Origin: Paeniglutamicibacter psychrophenolicus
Lineage (GTDB): Bacteria; Actinomycetota; Actinomycetes; Actinomycetales; Micrococcaceae
NCBI RefSeq assembly: GCF_030812255.1
Contig: NZ_JAUSSH010000008.1
Location: forward strand, 62,001 to 126,000
Length of the DNA stretch: 64,000 nt
Reading direction: 5' to 3'
The notes under the pieces were generated by a model that was not told where the DNA came from, ran no database searches, and saw only the letters and a program-made list of their open reading frames with translations. The position numbers and the translations under genes were made by a program. This document shows positions 22,705 to 29,236 of the stretch, piece after piece (the stretch's first letter is position 1; every line of letters starts with the position of its first letter).

Positions 22705-22934
22705 TGATAGTGCTCCCGGTAAATTTACGCGCGTTCGAAAGGCCTGAAGGGGGTTTACCTCAATCTTAGCTGGAATTGATGCACACTCTGGACATTCGGT
22801 CCCTGACTGCGCAAGATGCACATTACATGAGGTAGCTGAGGTTACAGCCCGCACGATTTCAAGACCGGAACACCCAAGTAATTTTGTGGCGACGGCTCTC
22901 CCGTTGAATTCGATGGAAGACACACCGGATTGAC

Positions 22935-22940
22935 TATGAT
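22935..22940 (+). promoter_or_regulatory. -10 element TATGAT giving a possible leaderless phosphatase mRNA
   Basis: TATGAT ends six bases before the phosphatase ATG at 22947, so transcription would begin at or next to the start codon. No Shine-Dalgarno sequence is present upstream. A convincing -35 box is not seen at 17 bases. The 242-bp region 22705-22946 also has to hold the promoter for the divergent kinase gene. Confidence 0.45.
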
Positions 22941-22946
22941 CAAGTC

Positions 22947-23549
22947 ATGATCAGGATCCTCACAGTCTGCACCGGCAACATTTGCCGTTCTCCTTTTGCC
23001 GAGCTGTTTCTTCAAAGCGAGCTGGACCGCCTCTCCCCCGGATCATTCATGATTCGCAGCGCTGGATCCCACGCGTTGGTCGGACATCAAATGGATGAGC
23101 GTTCCTCGATGAAGCTCCACGAAGTCGGTGTGGCCAGCGATGGATTCATAGCGAGGCAGCTTAACGAAGGCAACGCCAGCGGCAACGACCTAATACTTGC
23201 CTTGACCGACGAGCATCGAAGCAGCATTGTGGCAATGAGTCCAAGGCTGCTCAAGCGCACATATACCGTTCGAGAATTTGCTGCCGTGCTTGAAGAGTTG
23301 GCGGCCATGCCGGACGGAACGTTACCTAGGGGAAGCGATACGACGACTGTGGAGACACGTTGGGCGGCTTTGCTCAAGGCAGCTCCACTAGCGCGGCCCT
23401 CGGCGCGCAGTAAGTTGGCAGGAAATCTGGATGTCGTTGATCCCTATCGTCAAAGCGATTCGGTGTACGACCAGATGGTCGAAGACTTGCTCCCTGCGTT
23501 GAAAACAATCGTTGAATTTGAACTCATTCACGCAGCCGAGCAGGGCTGA
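22947..23549 (+). CDS. Low-molecular-weight protein-tyrosine phosphatase (Wzb-like)
   Basis: Predicted to dephosphorylate the Wzc-like kinase and so cycle polymer assembly. The P-loop CTGNICRSPF at 8-17 contains the nucleophile Cys8 and Arg14. The general acid lies in VVDPYRQSDSVYDQMVEDLL at about 168-187. The 200 residues are longer than typical (about 150) because of an insertion between these motifs. The 3' end is altered by an ISAs1-type insertion: the reading now ends Glu-Gln-Gly-stop inside the element, while the uninterrupted gene would have ended Glu-Gln-stop, using CAG TAA now at 27919-27924. Function is probably intact. Confidence 0.9.
   Translation: MIRILTVCTGNICRSPFAELFLQSELDRLSPGSFMIRSAGSHALVGHQMDERSSMKLHEVGVASDGFIARQLNEGNASGNDLILALTDEHRSSIVAMSPRLLKRTYTVREFAAVLEELAAMPDGTLPRGSDTTTVETRWAALLKAAPLARPSARSKLAGNLDVVDPYRQSDSVYDQMVEDLLPALKTIVEFELIHAAEQG
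23531..23540. repeat. Left 10-bp target duplication (CGCAGCCGAG)
   Basis: CGCAGCCGAG directly before the left terminal repeat of the outer element. An identical copy stands at 27909-27918 directly after the right terminal repeat. The length fits the 8-10 bp duplications of ISAs1-family elements. Confidence 0.92.
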
Positions 23550-23623
23550 TGCAAAGTCGTGAATGACTGCCCACGAACTATTCTCCCGACTCGGCCGGTC
23601 GGTGCTTTTAATGACGAATGTGA

Positions 23624-25199
23624 TGTCTCGGCACATCGGTGACAGTTCTCAGGACATTGGTGACACTCGATGTCTCAGGACATCAGTGACAATTGCCTTG
23701 AAGACCGCTCCTTGCGGAAGCGCGTGAGCGACCTGCTGATCCCGACGTATCCCGTCCCTTCCGGCGGCCAGGCGAATTCGGCGATGACTTCCCCTTCGGT
23801 ATTGGCAAATACGACGCCGTCGGTGTCCCAGGCAGCGATGACGATGCGTCCGGCCATTCGTTTCGTCAGGGAGAACAGGGTCTTGCGGATCTTGACGACG
23901 CCGTTGGAATAGACCTGCAGCTTCTGGATGCCGGTATCTGCCGGGTGGGCGATGGTGCCGCTGATTCTGCCGAATACGCTGGTCTCGAGTGCGGCTTCCG
24001 GTTCCGGGCCGACGGCATCGTGGCCCGGTGTTTCTGTCTCTGTCTCGGTTTCGGCCACGGGTTCGGGAACGCCCACCACCAATGGTGCGTGTTCGTTGAT
24101 GCCAGGGAGAACCGGAATGGGGCTTGGCCTGGGTTCTTCGGCAACGGCCGTCGCGTCCCACGACTGCTGCGGGGTGATGCGTCCGGGCAGTCCCTGGTGG
24201 GGACGTTCGGTGTTGTAGATGTGGTCGAATTGGTCAACCTGGGCTTGGAGCTCCGCATGGGAATGGGCCATGGGCTGCTTGTCCAGCCAGCGAAACAGGG
24301 TCTGGTGAAACCGCTCATTTTTGCCTTGGGTCGTCGGCTTGTATGGCTTGCCGGTGATCGCCTTGACCCCGAGGGAGGTCACGTAGGCGACCAGTTGCCC
24401 TTCGACGCCGCGCCGTGAGGGGTTGAGCGCCGCACCGTTGTCGGTGAGCATCCGCTGTGGCACCCCGCGGGCGGCGATGCCCTTCTTGACGACGGCTATG
24501 GCGGCCTCGCTGGTTTCCCCGCCCGCCACGTGGGTGGCGACCGCGAGGCGAGAGTGGTCGTCCTGCAGCTGGAAGATCACGCACTTGCGACCGCCGGCGA
24601 GCACGTACTCGGTGGCGTCCAGCTGCCAGCAGGCGTTCGGGGCGGGGTAGACGAACCTGCGGTACGAGGCCCGGGGTTTCTTGTTTGGTTCGGACCGGGC
24701 CACGTTCTTCTCGCGGAAGATCCGTGCCAGGGAGGCCACGGAGGGTGCCCGCATCCCCAGGGACAGCATCTTGTCGTGCACGCTGATTGGTCCGTGGTCC
24801 AGCCCGGAGGACTCCAGGGCGGCCCTCACCTGCAGCGCTTCCTGCTTGAGTTCCTCGGTGAGTTTCCTCGGCGAGGTCTTCGGCCGGCGTGAACGTGGTT
24901 CCAGGGCCGCGGCCTGGCCCTCGTCGCGTGCCCTGGCCCGGATCGCGTAGAACGTCTTGCGGGTGATCTCGTGTTCGTCACAAAACGTGGTGACGGAGCC
25001 GCGTGGTGCGTCATCGGGCCACTGGGCGATGGCAAGGCGGATACGGGCGTCGACAGGCTCATTCTTATTCACCAGTCATTCTTCATGCCCTGCACCCTGG
25101 CGGTCAAAGCCGTGTTAACCCTCGGGAAGTGTCACCACCAAAACCGCCTGAAGTGTCACCGATGTGTTGAGGCAGAACTGTCACCGATCTCCTGCGACG
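23624..25199 (-). mobile_element. IS481-type element nested in the ISAs1 element
   Basis: One transposase gene flanked by imperfect inverted repeats of about 26 bp: the left begins TGTCTCGGCACATCGG at 23624 and the right ends near 25199. About 21 of 26 positions match, including a 15-base identical core (ATCGGTGACAGTTCT at 23635-23649 and its complement at 25174-25188). Further GGTGACA repeats lie inside both ends, as usual for transposase-binding sites. I could not see a clear short target duplication. Confidence 0.8.
23675..25072 (-). CDS. IS481-family transposase (DDE integrase core)
   Basis: Catalyses movement of the surrounding element. The 465 residues start with a helix-turn-helix region (TTFCDEHEITRKTFYAIRAR at about 28-47). 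The integrase core follows with the DDE residues in WQLDATEYVLAGG (about 150), RMLTDNGAAL (about 210) and QGKNERFHQTLFRWLD (about 250). The tail after residue 310 is a Pro/Glu/Thr linker followed by a beta-rich domain. The start is GTG 25072. The gene is intact. Confidence 0.92.
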   Translation of the reverse strand: MNKNEPVDARIRLAIAQWPDDAPRGSVTTFCDEHEITRKTFYAIRARARDEGQAAALEPRSRRPKTSPRKLTEELKQEALQVRAALESSGLDHGPISVHDKMLSLGMRAPSVASLARIFREKNVARSEPNKKPRASYRRFVYPAPNACWQLDATEYVLAGGRKCVIFQLQDDHSRLAVATHVAGGETSEAAIAVVKKGIAARGVPQRMLTDNGAALNPSRRGVEGQLVAYVTSLGVKAITGKPYKPTTQGKNERFHQTLFRWLDKQPMAHSHAELQAQVDQFDHIYNTERPHQGLPGRITPQQSWDATAVAEEPRPSPIPVLPGINEHAPLVVGVPEPVAETETETETPGHDAVGPEPEAALETSVFGRISGTIAHPADTGIQKLQVYSNGVVKIRKTLFSLTKRMAGRIVIAAWDTDGVVFANTEGEVIAEFAWPPEGTGYVGISRSLTRFRKERSSRQLSLMS

Positions 25200-25249
25200 G
25201 CGATGATGGTAGTAGGCCATCAGCCCGGCGTGACCCTTCCTGCGACTGA

Positions 25250-25434
25250 CACCTCCAGAGGTTGTCCTGATAATGATCAGTCCGCCGGCTGGTGGCCAGC
25301 ACCAAACGTGTTGCCCAGCCGGACATGACTTAATAGGAGCCTGATCCAGAGGTCCCATCGCCGTCTTGTCTGCCCGACCGGTCAACACGAGCCCACCCTG
25401 TTGCTTTATCAGTTTCAGAGGAGCTCCATCCATC
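25250..25434 (+). ncRNA. Candidate bridge-RNA region of the IS110 element
   Basis: In IS110-family elements the non-coding left end can encode a structured bridge RNA that pairs with target and donor DNA. Here the region contains a long imperfect stem-loop at 25285-25322 (CCGGCTGG with CCAGCCGG on the outside, CAGCAC with GTGTTG within) and the 15-base segment at 25332-25346 that matches the right end. That match could be a donor-binding guide or an element-end repeat. Exact RNA ends cannot be read from sequence alone. Confidence 0.45.
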
Positions 25435-26658
25435 ATGACAAACGCGCAGTTCAAAGTCATCGCCGGCATCGATACTCATGCCGACACCCACCATGTTGCC
25501 CTCGTCACCGATTACGGGAAACGGCTCGGAGACCGCAAGTTCCTGGCCGTCGGATCCGGGTATCAGGAGATCGCCGCCTACCTGACCAGTTTCGGTCCCG
25601 TGACCGCCGTCGGCGTCGAGGGAACCGGCTCCTACGGAGCCGAACTGACACGCGTCCTGACCGGCCGCGGTTTCACTGTCAGGGAAGTGAACCGGCCCAA
25701 CCGTGCCGAGCGTCGCTTGCACGGAAAGTCAGATCCCTTGGACGCCTACCAAGCTGCAGAATCCGTGCTGGCGGAGCGCGGCACTTCCACGCCCAAGACA
25801 CGTGACGGACACGTCGAGGCGCTGCGCGTGTTGCGCACTGCCCGCACCAGTGCCATGAAGGCCCGCACCGCCTTGCTGAACCAGATCAGCGGAGTCCTCA
25901 CTTCCGCAGCGGAGGAGGTCAGGGCCAAATACCGGGGCATGAGCAGCGTGGCACGGGCCAAGGCCATGGCCACAAGCCGGCCTGGCGGGGACGCCGCGGA
26001 CCCGGTCGTGGCGACCCTGGTGACGCTCAAGCGGTTGGGGACCCGGCACCGGTTTCTCAGCGAGGAAATCGCCGAGACGGATGCCGAGTTGGCTGCCATC
26101 GTTTCTTCCCGTGCCCCGGAGCTTCTGGAGGTCAACGGCGTGGGTACCGTGGTCGCTTCCCAACTGTTGGTGACGTTCGGGGACAACCCCGAACGCATGG
26201 GCAGCGAGGCCGCATTCGCTGCGCTGGCTGGCGTCGCGCCGGTCCCGGCCTCCTCCGGGAAAACGAACCGCCACAGGCTCTCCCGCGGCGGTGACAGGCA
26301 AGCGAATGCATCGCTTTACCGCATCGTGTTGGTGCGCATGGCCAAGGATGCAAGGACGCGCGAATACGTGGCCAAGCGCACCGAGGACGGCATGGGCAAG
26401 AAGGAAATTATTCGCTGCCTCAAACGCTATGTTGCCCGGGAAATCTTCCGTGTCATGAAGAACCCCAGGCCTGCGCCGTTGGTCAATGACCTGCGTCCGC
26501 TGCGTCTGGGGCTGGGCCTCACCCAGGTGGTGGCAGCGAACGCCTTGGGTTGCTGGACCAGCACTATTTCAAGGATCGAGCGAGGCGAATGCCGTGACCA
26601 CGAGGCGATTGAACGTTATCGATCGTGGCTGGAAAAACAGGGCTCTGAAAGCAGTTGA
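25435..26658 (+). CDS. IS110-family transposase with C-terminal XRE-like helix-turn-helix
   Basis: RNA-guided-type recombinase in known members of the family. The start ATG 25435 follows AGAGGAG and gives 407 residues. The RuvC-like DEDD domain has GIDTHADTHHVALV (about 10-23), the acidic residue in GVEGTGSYGAEL (about 60) and GKSDPLDAYQAAES (about 98). The Tnp domain carries the region of the catalytic serine, APVPASSGKTNRHRLSRGG (about 275). Residues about 355-400 (LRLGLGLTQVVAANALGCWT and STISRIERGECRDHE) read as an XRE-type helix-turn-helix, not part of the minimal IS110 protein. The gene is intact. Confidence 0.9.
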   Translation: MTNAQFKVIAGIDTHADTHHVALVTDYGKRLGDRKFLAVGSGYQEIAAYLTSFGPVTAVGVEGTGSYGAELTRVLTGRGFTVREVNRPNRAERRLHGKSDPLDAYQAAESVLAERGTSTPKTRDGHVEALRVLRTARTSAMKARTALLNQISGVLTSAAEEVRAKYRGMSSVARAKAMATSRPGGDAADPVVATLVTLKRLGTRHRFLSEEIAETDAELAAIVSSRAPELLEVNGVGTVVASQLLVTFGDNPERMGSEAAFAALAGVAPVPASSGKTNRHRLSRGGDRQANASLYRIVLVRMAKDARTREYVAKRTEDGMGKKEIIRCLKRYVAREIFRVMKNPRPAPLVNDLRPLRLGLGLTQVVAANALGCWTSTISRIERGECRDHEAIERYRSWLEKQGSESS

Positions 26659-26735
26659 CAACAATAGGAGCCTCATCACAACTCCTGTTAAAACTGGTGA
26701 TTGTCTAAGATCCTCGTTCCAACCGGAGTTCTTCC

Positions 26736-27903
26736 ATGCCATCTTCCCCCATCAGCATCCTCCATGGCCAACTGGACGACATCCCCGAAAACCTCATCAG
26801 CTTCATGACTCCCGAATCGATCTTCCAGGCACTCGCCTCGTTCCCCGACCACCGCAAACCTCGCGGCATCCGCCACCAGCTGGGCTGGATCCTGGCCGTT
26901 GCCCTCTGCGCGGTGCTGTCCGGCGCCAAGCCCTTCACCGCCATCGCCGACTGGTCAACCTACGCCGCCTCCACCTCGCTGCGCACCACCGGATTCGCGG
27001 CACCGCACGTCACCACCTTCCAACGCGTCCTGGCCCGATTGGATGCAGAGGCCTTCGACCAAGCCATGGGCGCGTGGGTGCAAACCCAAGTCGAGGCGCG
27101 GATCATCGCCATCCGCGTCTTGGAAGTACGCGGAGCCAAAAACGGTGGCGCGGATCGCGTGCACCTCATGGCAGCGCTGGACCACGACACCGGCACCGTC
27201 CTCGGACAGGTCGACGTCGGAGTCAAGACCAACGAGATCACCCGGCTCGACTCGCTCTTGGAAACCCTCGGTGACCTGGACGGCAGGATCATTACCATCG
27301 ATGCCCTGCACACTATGGGTCGCCATGTGCGAGTTCCTGCATGCCCGTGGCGCCCATTTCCTGATGAGGATGAAAGGCAACCAACCCAAGCTGCTCAAAC
27401 AACTCAAGGCCCTGCCATAGAAGGAAGTCCCGTGGGGGAACCAGCAACAAGACACCGGGCACGGGCGCAGGAGCATCCGCAAGATCAAGGTCGCCACGCT
27501 CACTGGCGGCATCAAGTTCCCGCACGCGTTGCAGGCAGCGCAACTGGCCCGAAAGACACGGCCACTGAAGGGGAAGAAGTGGTCCATCGAGGTCGTGTAT
27601 CTCATCACTTCGTTGCCGGCCCACCAGGCAAGCCCGCGGCAGCTGAACACCTGGATCCGGGGCCACTGGAAAATAGAGAATTCCCTCCATTGGTGCCGGG
27701 ACGTGACGTACCAGGAGGACGCGAGCCAGACCCGGACGGGTGTCGCGCCGCGGGTGATGGCGAGCCTGCGAAACCTGGTCCTCAGCCTGCGTCGGCTCAA
27801 CCACAGCACCAACATCGCCAAGGCCAGCCGCTACATGGCCAAACACCCCGCACGCCCGCTGGAACGCATCGGGTTCACGACCCGGTCAGCGACTTTGCAT
27901 TAG
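26736..27903 (+). pseudogene. ISAs1-family transposase, frameshifted and with an internal stop
   Basis: Starts at ATG 26736 with the typical N-terminus (IFQALASFPDHRKPRGIRHQ and WILAVALCAVLSGAKPFTAI). It reads the DDE-type core ALDHDTGTVLGQVDVGVKTN and IITIDALHT up to about 27326. One extra base near 27327-27330 shifts the frame to CEFLHARGAHFLMRMKGNQP. A TAG stop follows at 27418-27420. Beyond it the same frame continues with the conserved C-terminus (GHWKIENSLHWCRDVTYQED) to a stop at 27901-27903 in the right terminal repeat. The enzyme is therefore inactive unless recoded. Confidence 0.9.
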
Positions 27904-27908
27904 CCCTG

Positions 27909-27918
27909 CGCAGCCGAG
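27909..27918. repeat. Right 10-bp target duplication (CGCAGCCGAG)
   Basis: Identical to 23531-23540. It is followed by CAGTAA, the presumed original last codon and stop of the phosphatase gene. Confidence 0.92.
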
Positions 27919-28003
27919 CAGTAATCTGTCGATTTCTCTAGGCACAGTCCAGGGCATTGAACCCTTAGCAAAGCCGGAAGAACTTGGCTCGTATGTTTGT
28001 CAA

Positions 28004-29236
28004 TTACTTTCTCGGACCTGTTTTTCGATCCAGCTGACGATTTACCTGAGTTTCGCTTTGGAGTCGTTCCTTCGGGCAATTACTCAGATATTGGTTTGTT
28101 CTCGCTGCCGTCAAGATTGCAAGGACAACTGGAATCATAATGTACGGACTGTTGAATCCGCTTACAGAGAACCCATTGGAAATAGCGATGAGCACCAATG
28201 CAATCGCCCCCGTGCGTTGGACACGTGATTTTCTAAGCGCGAACCAAACAACCCAAATAACAAGCAGAAAACCGAAGATCCCTGCGTCGAAGATTACGCG
28301 CAGCGTAAAGGCATGGAAGATGACCGAGTAACAACTACCATCGCCAGTCGTTGAGAACAGTGCTTGGTAAAAGGACAGGCGATCACAGCCCTCGCGACTA
28401 ACGGGAGAAATCGGCACAGTTCCGAACAGCCATTCGATACTGGTCCATTTTTGGGTCTCACTGAGGAAAACATCGAAAAAATTCAGCCGATCGATCTGCC
28501 CGCCTTCTGGGTTCCTTGAAGCGAATATCTGGAGAGGGATCAACACCAACAACGGGATCAAACAAGCGAGCAAGTACTTGACAAGAAGACTTGCCTTTTG
28601 AGCCTGTGAAATGGCGAACAAGCAGAGAATGAGGAACGCGACTGCGCCGCTACGTGAACCTGACAAAAGTGTCAAGGTTCCTAGGGTGAAGATAATCAGA
28701 AACTTATGTCTGATATGGCGATACAGCGCCACTACCAGTCCGGAGAAAAGTGCTAACTCAAAATTGTTCTCGGTGAGCAGTCCGGGCCGCTCGTTTGGTC
28801 CCAAAACTGCCGAAGTTAGTATGGATTTGAGCGTAGCCATCCCAATGAGGAGCCACGTGACGATAACTAAAGGACGAACAGGGCCCCACTTTTTCCGAAT
28901 CGCGAACGCTAAGACCATCAGGTAGAACATCCACCGATAGGCCTGCAAAAAGTCTTCCAATGGGGAATTTGTCACGAATGCAGGTACCACTCGAGTTACT
29001 AGGTATCCCGCTAGGAAGAACAATAGTCCGGGTGCAGCGATTCGGCCCCGGCTTATCATGATCAATACGAAAAGGATGAGCCACGCATCGAAAAGTGACG
29101 TCATTGGAAGGACGCCAAACTCACCTAGCCGAGGAACACTGAGGATTCCTGCCACGAGTAGCATCACATAGAGCGCACTGCGGAGGACCTGAGGGACAGC
29201 CCCACTGTCATGTATTCGTCGAGACAAGTCCGTCAT
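28004..29236 (-). CDS. O-antigen ligase/polymerase-like membrane protein (probable Wzy)
   Basis: Predicted to polymerise lipid-linked repeat units outside the membrane. The 410 residues hold about ten hydrophobic segments (YVMLLVAGILSV, SLFDAWLILFVLIMI, FLIIFTLGTLTLLSGSRSG, YLLACLIPLLVLIPLQIF, FLLVIWVVWFAL and others) with a larger loop at about 235-300. The SGSRSGAV segment is typical of the Wzy/O-antigen ligase family. Start ATG 29236 lies after an AGGGGGG ribosome site. GC is clearly lower than in the flanks. It is separated from the upstream wzx operon by 2.6 kb of mobile-DNA debris. Confidence 0.8.
   Translation of the reverse strand: MTDLSRRIHDSGAVPQVLRSALYVMLLVAGILSVPRLGEFGVLPMTSLFDAWLILFVLIMISRGRIAAPGLLFFLAGYLVTRVVPAFVTNSPLEDFLQAYRWMFYLMVLAFAIRKKWGPVRPLVIVTWLLIGMATLKSILTSAVLGPNERPGLLTENNFELALFSGLVVALYRHIRHKFLIIFTLGTLTLLSGSRSGAVAFLILCLFAISQAQKASLLVKYLLACLIPLLVLIPLQIFASRNPEGGQIDRLNFFDVFLSETQKWTSIEWLFGTVPISPVSREGCDRLSFYQALFSTTGDGSCYSVIFHAFTLRVIFDAGIFGFLLVIWVVWFALRKSRVQRTGAIALVLIAISNGFSVSGFNSPYIMIPVVLAILTAARTNQYLSNCPKERLQSETQVNRQLDRKTGPRK

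What the first reader, a model, noticed from the sequence alone, without database searches (positions are those of the whole stretch)
23531..27924. Three nested insertion sequences whose order can be read, with the interrupted gene's original end still visible
A 19-bp inverted repeat (18 matches) at 23541-23559 and 27890-27908 is flanked by a perfect 10-bp duplication CGCAGCCGAG. An ISAs1-type element therefore entered the last codons of the tyrosine phosphatase gene. Removing 23541-27918 joins GCAGCCGAG to CAGTAA and restores a natural stop; the insertion changed the protein by one added glycine only. Later an IS481-type and an IS110-type element landed between the left repeat and the ISAs1 transposase. 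Today the ISAs1 transposase is frameshifted and has a stop, while the two inner transposases are intact. This gives a relative dating: outer element oldest, inner two younger.
Basis: partly seen in the sequence, partly recalled or inferred. Interest (0 to 1): 0.7.

Follow-up and report, generated by a model that had tools for sequence, protein, structure and literature searches.

The report
RNA-guided element inside nested insertion sequences
Three jumping genes sit one inside the other at the end of a bacterial phosphatase gene, and the innermost appears to carry a guide RNA whose guide sequence matches the end of the element it landed in, which would explain how it got there.

Summary
An ISAs1 copy (23541-27908; 18/19 terminal repeat; 10-bp duplication CGCAGCCGAG) sits in the last codons of a low-molecular-weight tyrosine phosphatase gene. 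A congener (G013) has the gene end without insert; an intact ISAs1 in G009 has matching ends and its own 10-bp duplication. An IS481-type element (23619-26680) sits in the ISAs1 leader. The IS110 (25199-26674) sits inside the IS481 right terminal repeat, 6 bp from its tip.

The IS110 left end has the features of a bridge RNA. Its left-target guide TCCTGCGAC (25238-25246) equals the IS481 bases at 25190-25198. In relatives the guide changes together with the target (mean shared run 7.11 versus 3.84 permuted, 54 unique pairs, 0 of 20,000). In G005 three identical IS110 copies sit in three IS481 ends, while those two IS481s differ at 8 of 1565 positions, which points to repeated targeted insertion.

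Bridge-RNA IS110s, and IS1111-group elements that target transposon ends, are published. New here is an IS110 addressed to IS481 ends. Loose ends: the IS481 lacks a target duplication here, and the right-target guide fits only 3 of 6.

The parts
22947..23549 (+). low-molecular-weight tyrosine phosphatase gene, now ending HAAEQG*
   Evidence: PF01451 E 3.7e-23; homologue without insert in G013
23531..23540 (.). left copy of the ISAs1 target duplication CGCAGCCGAG
23541..27908 (+). ISAs1 element, interrupted between 23618 and 26681
   Evidence: 18/19 terminal repeats; intact 1307-bp relative in G009 joins the two parts
23619..26680 (-). IS481-type element (TGTGATG...ATCACA), interrupted by the IS110; 1586 bp without it
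   Evidence: 206 bits, below the NCBIfam cut-off of 224; related termini in the genus
23675..25072 (-). IS481-type transposase, 465 aa, open
25190..25198 (+). left target TCCTGCGAC in the IS481 right terminal repeat
25199..26674 (+). IS110 element, 1476 bp
   Evidence: ends fixed by comparison with other copies
25202..25207 (+). GATGAT, candidate -10 box, 17 nt from TTGACA if the element ends are joined
25215..25296 (+). target-binding loop of the predicted bridge RNA: stem 25215-25234/25280-25296, apical hairpin 25248-25254/25259-25266
25238..25246 (+). left target guide TCCTGCGAC
25269..25274 (+). right target guide GATAAT (3 of 6 fit to ATCACA)
25332..25342 (+). left donor guide AATAGGAGCCT, same as the element's right end 26663-26673
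   Evidence: repeat D12
25357..25362 (+). right donor guide ATCGCC, reverse complement of the element's first six bases
25435..26658 (+). IS110 recombinase, 407 aa, with a C-terminal HTH_31 domain
   Evidence: NF033542 188 bits, cut-off 140; PF01548, PF02371, PF13560
26655..26660 (+). TTGACA, candidate -35 box of the circle-junction promoter
26675..26680 (+). right target ATCACA, tip of the IS481 terminal repeat
26736..27903 (+). ISAs1 transposase remnant (frameshift, in-frame stop)
27909..27918 (.). right copy of the ISAs1 target duplication

Best explanation
This is a strictly nested ISAs1[IS481[IS110]] composite. ISAs1 inserted by DDE transposition with a 10-bp duplication. An IS481-type element entered its leader. 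The IS110 then recombined, as a circle, into the IS481 right terminal repeat because its bridge RNA carries a left-target guide identical to nine bases of that repeat. Shown from sequence: the nesting, the ends, the guide-target identity, its change together with the target across relatives, the conserved fold of the target-binding part, and repeated occurrence in IS481 ends in a second species. Inferred: that the RNA is made, from the circle junction; that the recombinase is active; and loss of IS481 mobility at that end.
For: Ends and empty sites. IS110 position inside the IS481 terminal repeat. Guide versus own left target: mean longest shared run 7.41 in 49 unique pairs against 3.94 when permuted (maximum 4.76; 0 of 20,000), 7.16 versus 3.87 with one pair per distinct guide, n=37; with six further left ends added, 7.11 versus 3.84 in 54 unique pairs, 0 of 20,000. 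Right donor guide exactly complementary to the first six bases of the element in 42 of the 49 loci where it was found, over six sequence classes; the other 7 (three of them the G005 copies) differ at one base; in 4 of 53 none was found. Right target guide as a set: 4.40 versus 2.79 over 20 unique pairs, 0 of 20,000. RNA fold: z -2.97, 2 of 200 shuffles as good; in the target-binding part 15 of 23 pairs change on both sides, 95.5% of cells paired, slid controls at most 43.8%. In the 25 of 54 loci whose right end matched the search pattern with at most one mismatch, the joined ends give a TTGACA-like box, 17 nt, then [AG]ATNNT. G005: three IS110 copies with 0 differences in 1476 bp, all at the same place in IS481 ends, while the two IS481s differ at 8 of 1565 positions and have different 15-bp duplications.
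Against: The right target guide fits only 3 of 6 in the window and G005 copies, no better than guides of other loci. The nine-base guide match occurs 51 times in the genome, guide and target included, against 43 for the reversed control pattern, so the left guide alone does not single out IS481 ends. The IS481 has no target duplication in the window. 8 of the 53 loci share five bases or fewer with their target (L105, L110, L118, L131, L136, L137, L144, L169), as do 5 of the 6 left ends added. G005 also has two diverged or partial relatives (78-79%); the left end of one (L099) is not in an IS481 end. The donor hairpin has no pair that changes on both sides. Identity of the three G005 copies could also come from gene conversion.
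Confidence: 0.87

Rival explanations
1. The IS110 landed in the IS481 end by chance or simple preference, and the guide match is coincidence.
For: One copy of this guide type in this genome; nine-base matches are common (51 in the genome); the right guide fits poorly.
Against: Guide and target change together across lineages; three identical copies in G005 are all at the same base of IS481 ends; the second copy in the same genome (C19) has a different guide that matches its different target.
Confidence: 0.04
2. IS481 and IS110 travel as one composite unit, so that co-occurrence reflects hitch-hiking and not targeting.
For: G005 has two IS481+IS110 units flanked by different 15-bp duplications; the window has the same arrangement.
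Against: In G005 the IS110 copies are identical while their IS481 hosts differ at 8 of 1565 positions, and one IS481 carries the IS110 at both ends; an IS110 6 bp from the tip should damage the terminal repeat (inference).
Confidence: 0.12
3. The whole nest was assembled elsewhere and jumped into the phosphatase gene as one 4.4-kb ISAs1 composite.
For: ISAs1 ends and the 10-bp duplication are intact; nothing in the sequence dates the arrival at this locus.
Against: The ISAs1 transposase is broken, so transposase in trans would be needed; among the 10 matches in this genome (40 of 156 candidates scored) there was no intact ISAs1 of this kind.
Confidence: 0.2

Closest known systems
IS621 and the IS110 family with bridge RNA (Durrant et al. 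2024, PMC11208160; passages and one section read)
   Same: IS110-type recombinase, long non-coding left end with two internal loops, guides for target and donor, promoter formed across the joined ends, target guides agreeing with natural target sites
   Different: Different sequence and guides; the base shared by both junctions is C here, not the CT core; the target is an IS481 terminal repeat; the recombinase has a C-terminal HTH domain
seekRNA of IS1111/IS110 elements (Siddiquee et al. 2024, PMC11187229; abstract and passages read)
   Different: Other elements and targets
IS4321/IS5075 of the IS1111 group, which target Tn21-family terminal repeats (Partridge and Hall 2003; title seen in reference lists)
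   Same: An element of the IS110/IS1111 kind that lands in the terminal repeat of another mobile element
   Different: IS1111 group with subterminal repeats; here an IS110-type element in an IS481 end
ISKrh6 of Kocuria (PMC12500396; passages read)
   Same: IS110-family element of an actinobacterium, size given there as 1,476 bp, with a seekRNA region named by its authors
   Different: Sequence not compared here; its target is not given in the passages read
ISAs1 relative in G009 (C41)
   Same: Matching ends, 10-bp duplication, 93% identity
   Different: Uninterrupted, with an open transposase frame

Membership tests
IS110 family with bridge RNA | IS110 recombinase with N-terminal DEDD and C-terminal Transposase_20 domains | tested here: met
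   NF033542 188.1 bits (cut-off 140), PF01548, PF02371; single catalytic residues not tested
IS110 family with bridge RNA | left non-coding end folds into a conserved structure with a target-binding loop | tested here: met
IS110 family with bridge RNA | conserved donor-binding hairpin | tested here: inconclusive
   present in the single-sequence fold; no pair changed on both sides in the alignment
IS110 family with bridge RNA | guides match own target and donor | tested here: met
   left target and right donor guides; right target guide as a set, but only 3 of 6 for the window copy
IS110 family with bridge RNA | circle junction makes a promoter | tested here: inconclusive
   boxes and 17-nt spacing in 25 of 25 loci with a recognised right end, of 54 examined; the search pattern itself contained the TTGACA box; no transcription data
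IS110 family with bridge RNA | RNA-dependent recombination | not testable with these tools
   needs an assay
ISAs1 family | family transposase | tested here: met
   NF033564 86.9 and 70.6 bits, cut-off 70
ISAs1 family | terminal repeats beginning CAGGG and 8-10 bp duplication (recalled) | tested here: met
IS481 family | family transposase model | tested here: inconclusive
   NF033577 is the best model, 206.2 bits, below its cut-off of 224
IS481 family | terminal repeats beginning TGT and a target duplication (recalled) | tested here: inconclusive
   TGT ends present; 15-bp duplications in G005 and at the same ISAs1 site in G002 (read); none in the window

The most novel reading that the evidence does not exclude
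This IS110 lineage is a dedicated, RNA-programmed parasite of IS481 terminal repeats. Its guide has followed sequence variants of those repeats (TCCTGCGAC in the window species, TCTTGAGAC in G005), it can occupy both ends of one IS481, and each landing splits the terminal repeat and so caps the host element.
Probability: 0.45. Interest if true: 0.65.

Novelty: new member of a known kind. Interest (0 to 1): 0.45.

Why it matters
It gives a natural case in which nested insertion sequences can be explained mechanistically: the innermost insertion is written in an RNA guide. Relatives with different guides and targets form a natural retargeting series, with two differently guided copies in the window's own genome, and the three identical copies in G005 make RNA-guided attack on another insertion sequence directly testable. 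It also offers IS110 recombinases from soil actinobacteria with predicted guides.

Tried and rejected
An IS110 left boundary at 25202, suggested by blastn, was rejected for 25199, because the right donor guide pairs with the first six bases from 25199 and the IS481 match ends at 25198. A core 'AT' further inside was considered and dropped because it would leave extra bases in the restored IS481 end. An Rfam scan of 22900-28100 gave one sub-threshold match, at 25768-25809 to a human lncRNA region, taken as chance. A pattern scan of 295 family genomes for the IS481::IS110 junction found the window and three places in G005 and nothing else (up to 3 mismatches). The plasmid collection gave 83 records, only one of them with a single place covering at least 80% of the IS110, and was not pursued. 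Papers: seven searches; nothing in the listings or passages seen describes an IS110 aimed at IS481 ends, and most of the listed papers were not opened. The second query was read in a wrong frame and is not used. In scripts and notes I used 'LDG' for the guide that Durrant et al. call the right donor guide; the report follows their naming.

Rows dropped: of 74 loci, 55 were used (19 more distant or short ones left out); with 5 copies from the session this made 60 records, 53 of which had a recognisable left end and enough flank. Six more left ends seen (L090-L094, L099; several are fragments) were left out there and added; 5 of these 6 share only 3-4 bases with their flank and one shares 7. One search aligned 28 of the 41 left ends. 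One search counted 23 of the 33 pairs; left out were five that are donor-guide complementarity and five in the second half, none of the latter with a change on both sides. The right-guide test used 20 unique pairs; one search found a right-end candidate in 27 of 54 loci, two of which (L138, L148) were dropped for more than one mismatch. The place of the right guide was chosen by eye from these same sequences, and one guide (L112) was set by hand because the script had picked the wrong place.
Full report
What is there. The window lies at G000:C8:62001-126000, a 4.57-Mb genome in 35 contigs; the named relatives of its IS110 are mostly Arthrobacter-like actinobacteria. A low-molecular-weight tyrosine phosphatase gene (22947-23549; PF01451) ends in a 10-bp repeat, CGCAGCCGAG, which reappears at 27909-27918, and between the copies lies a 4368-bp element with 18/19 terminal repeats. 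Two coding pieces in its right part score as ISAs1 transposase. An intact relative in G009 is 93% identical to the window's ISAs1 parts read as one, starts with CAGGGCT, is flanked by its own 10-bp repeat, and has an open frame where the window copy has a frameshift and an in-frame stop. The nearest phosphatase homologue among 15 congeneric genomes (G013, 81%) shows the gene end without an insert.

The nest is strict. Compared with intact ISAs1 copies, the window's ISAs1 is interrupted between 23618 and 26681. The insert begins TGTGATG and ends ATCACA, the termini of an IS481-type element. The IS110 does not lie beside the IS481 but in its right terminal repeat...TCTCCTGCGAC | IS110 | ATCACA. 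IS481 ends without an IS110 occur in the genus: 14 pattern matches in 7 of 15 genomes at up to 2 mismatches, left and right ends together, one of them the window's own left end and one (G005) reading GACGGCACA. The order of nesting is therefore ISAs1, then IS481, then IS110.

How the innermost insertion was chosen. The IS110 left end holds a stretch, TCCTGCGAC at 25238-25246, identical to the nine bases left of the insertion point (positions). In G005 the same stretch reads TCTTGAGAC, as does the IS481 end in which that IS110 sits; in the second copy of the window genome (C19) it reads TAAGTAAAC, again equal to its own flank. I collected 74 relatives from one genome scan and used 55 of them plus five copies from the session; 53 of these 60 could be scored. 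The mean longest run shared by guide and own left target was 7.41 bases in 49 unique pairs, against 3.94 (sd 0.20, maximum 4.76) in 20,000 permutations; with one pair per distinct guide (37) it was 7.16 against 3.87, never reached. Eight of the 53 share five bases or fewer. Adding six left ends first left out, mostly fragments, five of which fit poorly, gives 7.11 against 3.84 in 54 unique pairs, 0 of 20,000. The right donor guide is the exact complement of the element's first six bases in 42 of the 49 loci where it could be found, across six different sequences; the other seven, among them the three G005 copies, differ at one base. The right target guide also follows its target as a set (4.40 versus 2.79 in 20 pairs, 0 of 20,000), though its place was chosen by eye on the same data, and in the window and in G005 it fits only 3 of 6.

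The RNA. The left end of the window copy folds into a stem with an internal loop that holds the two target guides, followed by a second hairpin with the donor guides (MFE -62.2 kcal/mol, z -2.97, 2 of 200 shuffles as good). On 28 aligned relatives, 15 of 23 pairs of the target-loop stems change on both sides and 95.5% of cells are paired; sliding the partner by one to three columns gives at most 43.8%, and no shuffle of 500 reaches any of the five measures. Ten further pairs proposed by RNAalifold were left out of that count: five are the donor-guide complementarity between the first and last columns, not part of the fold, and five lie in the second half, none with a change on both sides, so the donor hairpin is not supported by covariation here. 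Joining right and left ends, as in an excised circle, places a TTGACA-like box 17 nt from [AG]ATNNT in the 25 of 54 loci whose right end was recognised with at most one mismatch; the search pattern contained TTGACA, so the box is partly built in, the spacing less so. This agrees with the published description of IS110 bridge RNAs, in which a promoter forms across the joined ends and loops pair with target and donor (PMC11208160, passages and section 7; PMC11187229, passages). No Rfam family matched 25199-25370.

Independent insertions. G005 carries three IS110 copies in IS481 ends; one IS481 has them at both ends, with a 15-bp duplication ACGTAGTGGGCCAAC outside, the other at its right end only, with duplication AGACGGGTCCCGGAA. 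The three IS110 copies have no difference in 1476 bp, whereas the two IS481s differ at 8 of 1565 positions. The simplest reading is that the IS110 spread after the IS481s had diverged and hit IS481 ends three times; gene conversion among the copies cannot be excluded. G005 also has two diverged or partial relatives (78-79%), and the left end of one is not in an IS481 end (L099). Of 54 left ends examined, the four with an IS481-like flank are the window copy and the three in G005. A scan of 295 genomes of the family for this junction found these four and no others.

What does not fit. The IS481 in the window lacks a target duplication: intact ISAs1 reads CTTTTAATGACGAAAAACTCCTG, the window has CTTTTAATGACGAA on the left and ACTCCTG on the right, so the second copy and two A's are missing. 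Another IS481 lineage sits at the same ISAs1 spot in G002 with the 15-bp duplication CTTTTGATGACGAAG (read), so the site may be a preferred one. A later small deletion or recombination between IS481 copies could explain the window; I could not decide. The nine-base guide match occurs 51 times in the genome, guide and target included, against 43 for the reversed control, so further bases must matter.

Dating. Nesting orders the events within the composite. It does not show that ISAs1 reached the phosphatase gene before the others entered it; a strain with a bare ISAs1 at this site would settle that.

Known and new. Bridge-RNA IS110 elements and IS1111-group elements that target transposon ends are published; the second is known to me here from a title in reference lists. 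Seven literature searches showed no report of an IS110 directed at IS481 ends; the library holds open-licence papers only, and most of the listed papers were not opened. I file this as a new member of a known kind, with an unusual natural target.

Noticed in passing
window 27986-28032 (minus strand): 47 nt, 77% identical to the IS110 right end (E 6e-7 against a 300-nt stretch chosen after the match was seen), with TTGACAAACATACGAGC: probably a relic of another IS110, whose frame, read by eye, still gives WIEKQVRESN*. It now forms, in another frame, the last codons of an open frame 28004-29236 that looks by eye like a membrane polymerase.
   Followed up: partly
L097 (G005:C1), left end of the IS481: This IS481 end reads GAGACGGCACA where others read GAGACATCACA; the changed bases lie exactly where an IS110 beginning GGC would join. 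It may be the footprint of a lost IS110 insertion.
   Followed up: no
L100 (G002:C2) and L011 (G000:C19:74107): A different IS481 lineage sits at the same spot of the ISAs1 leader as in the window; in G002 with a 15-bp duplication. The leader may be a preferred IS481 target.
   Followed up: partly
window 25366-26655: The IS110 recombinase has a C-terminal helix-turn-helix (HTH_31) beyond the stretch matched by the NCBIfam IS110 model; the region aligns in the five relatives compared.
   Followed up: no
L131, L142: Two contigs labelled Vibrio cholerae strain 35D carry this actinobacterial IS110 group; probably contamination or a mislabel.
   Followed up: no
L112, L122, L129: IS110 relatives whose left target lies near a sequence resembling a tRNA 3' end (GGGACTCGAAC, judged by eye); the guides CTTGAAAAC and CTTGCAAAC differ with the local sequence.
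   Followed up: no
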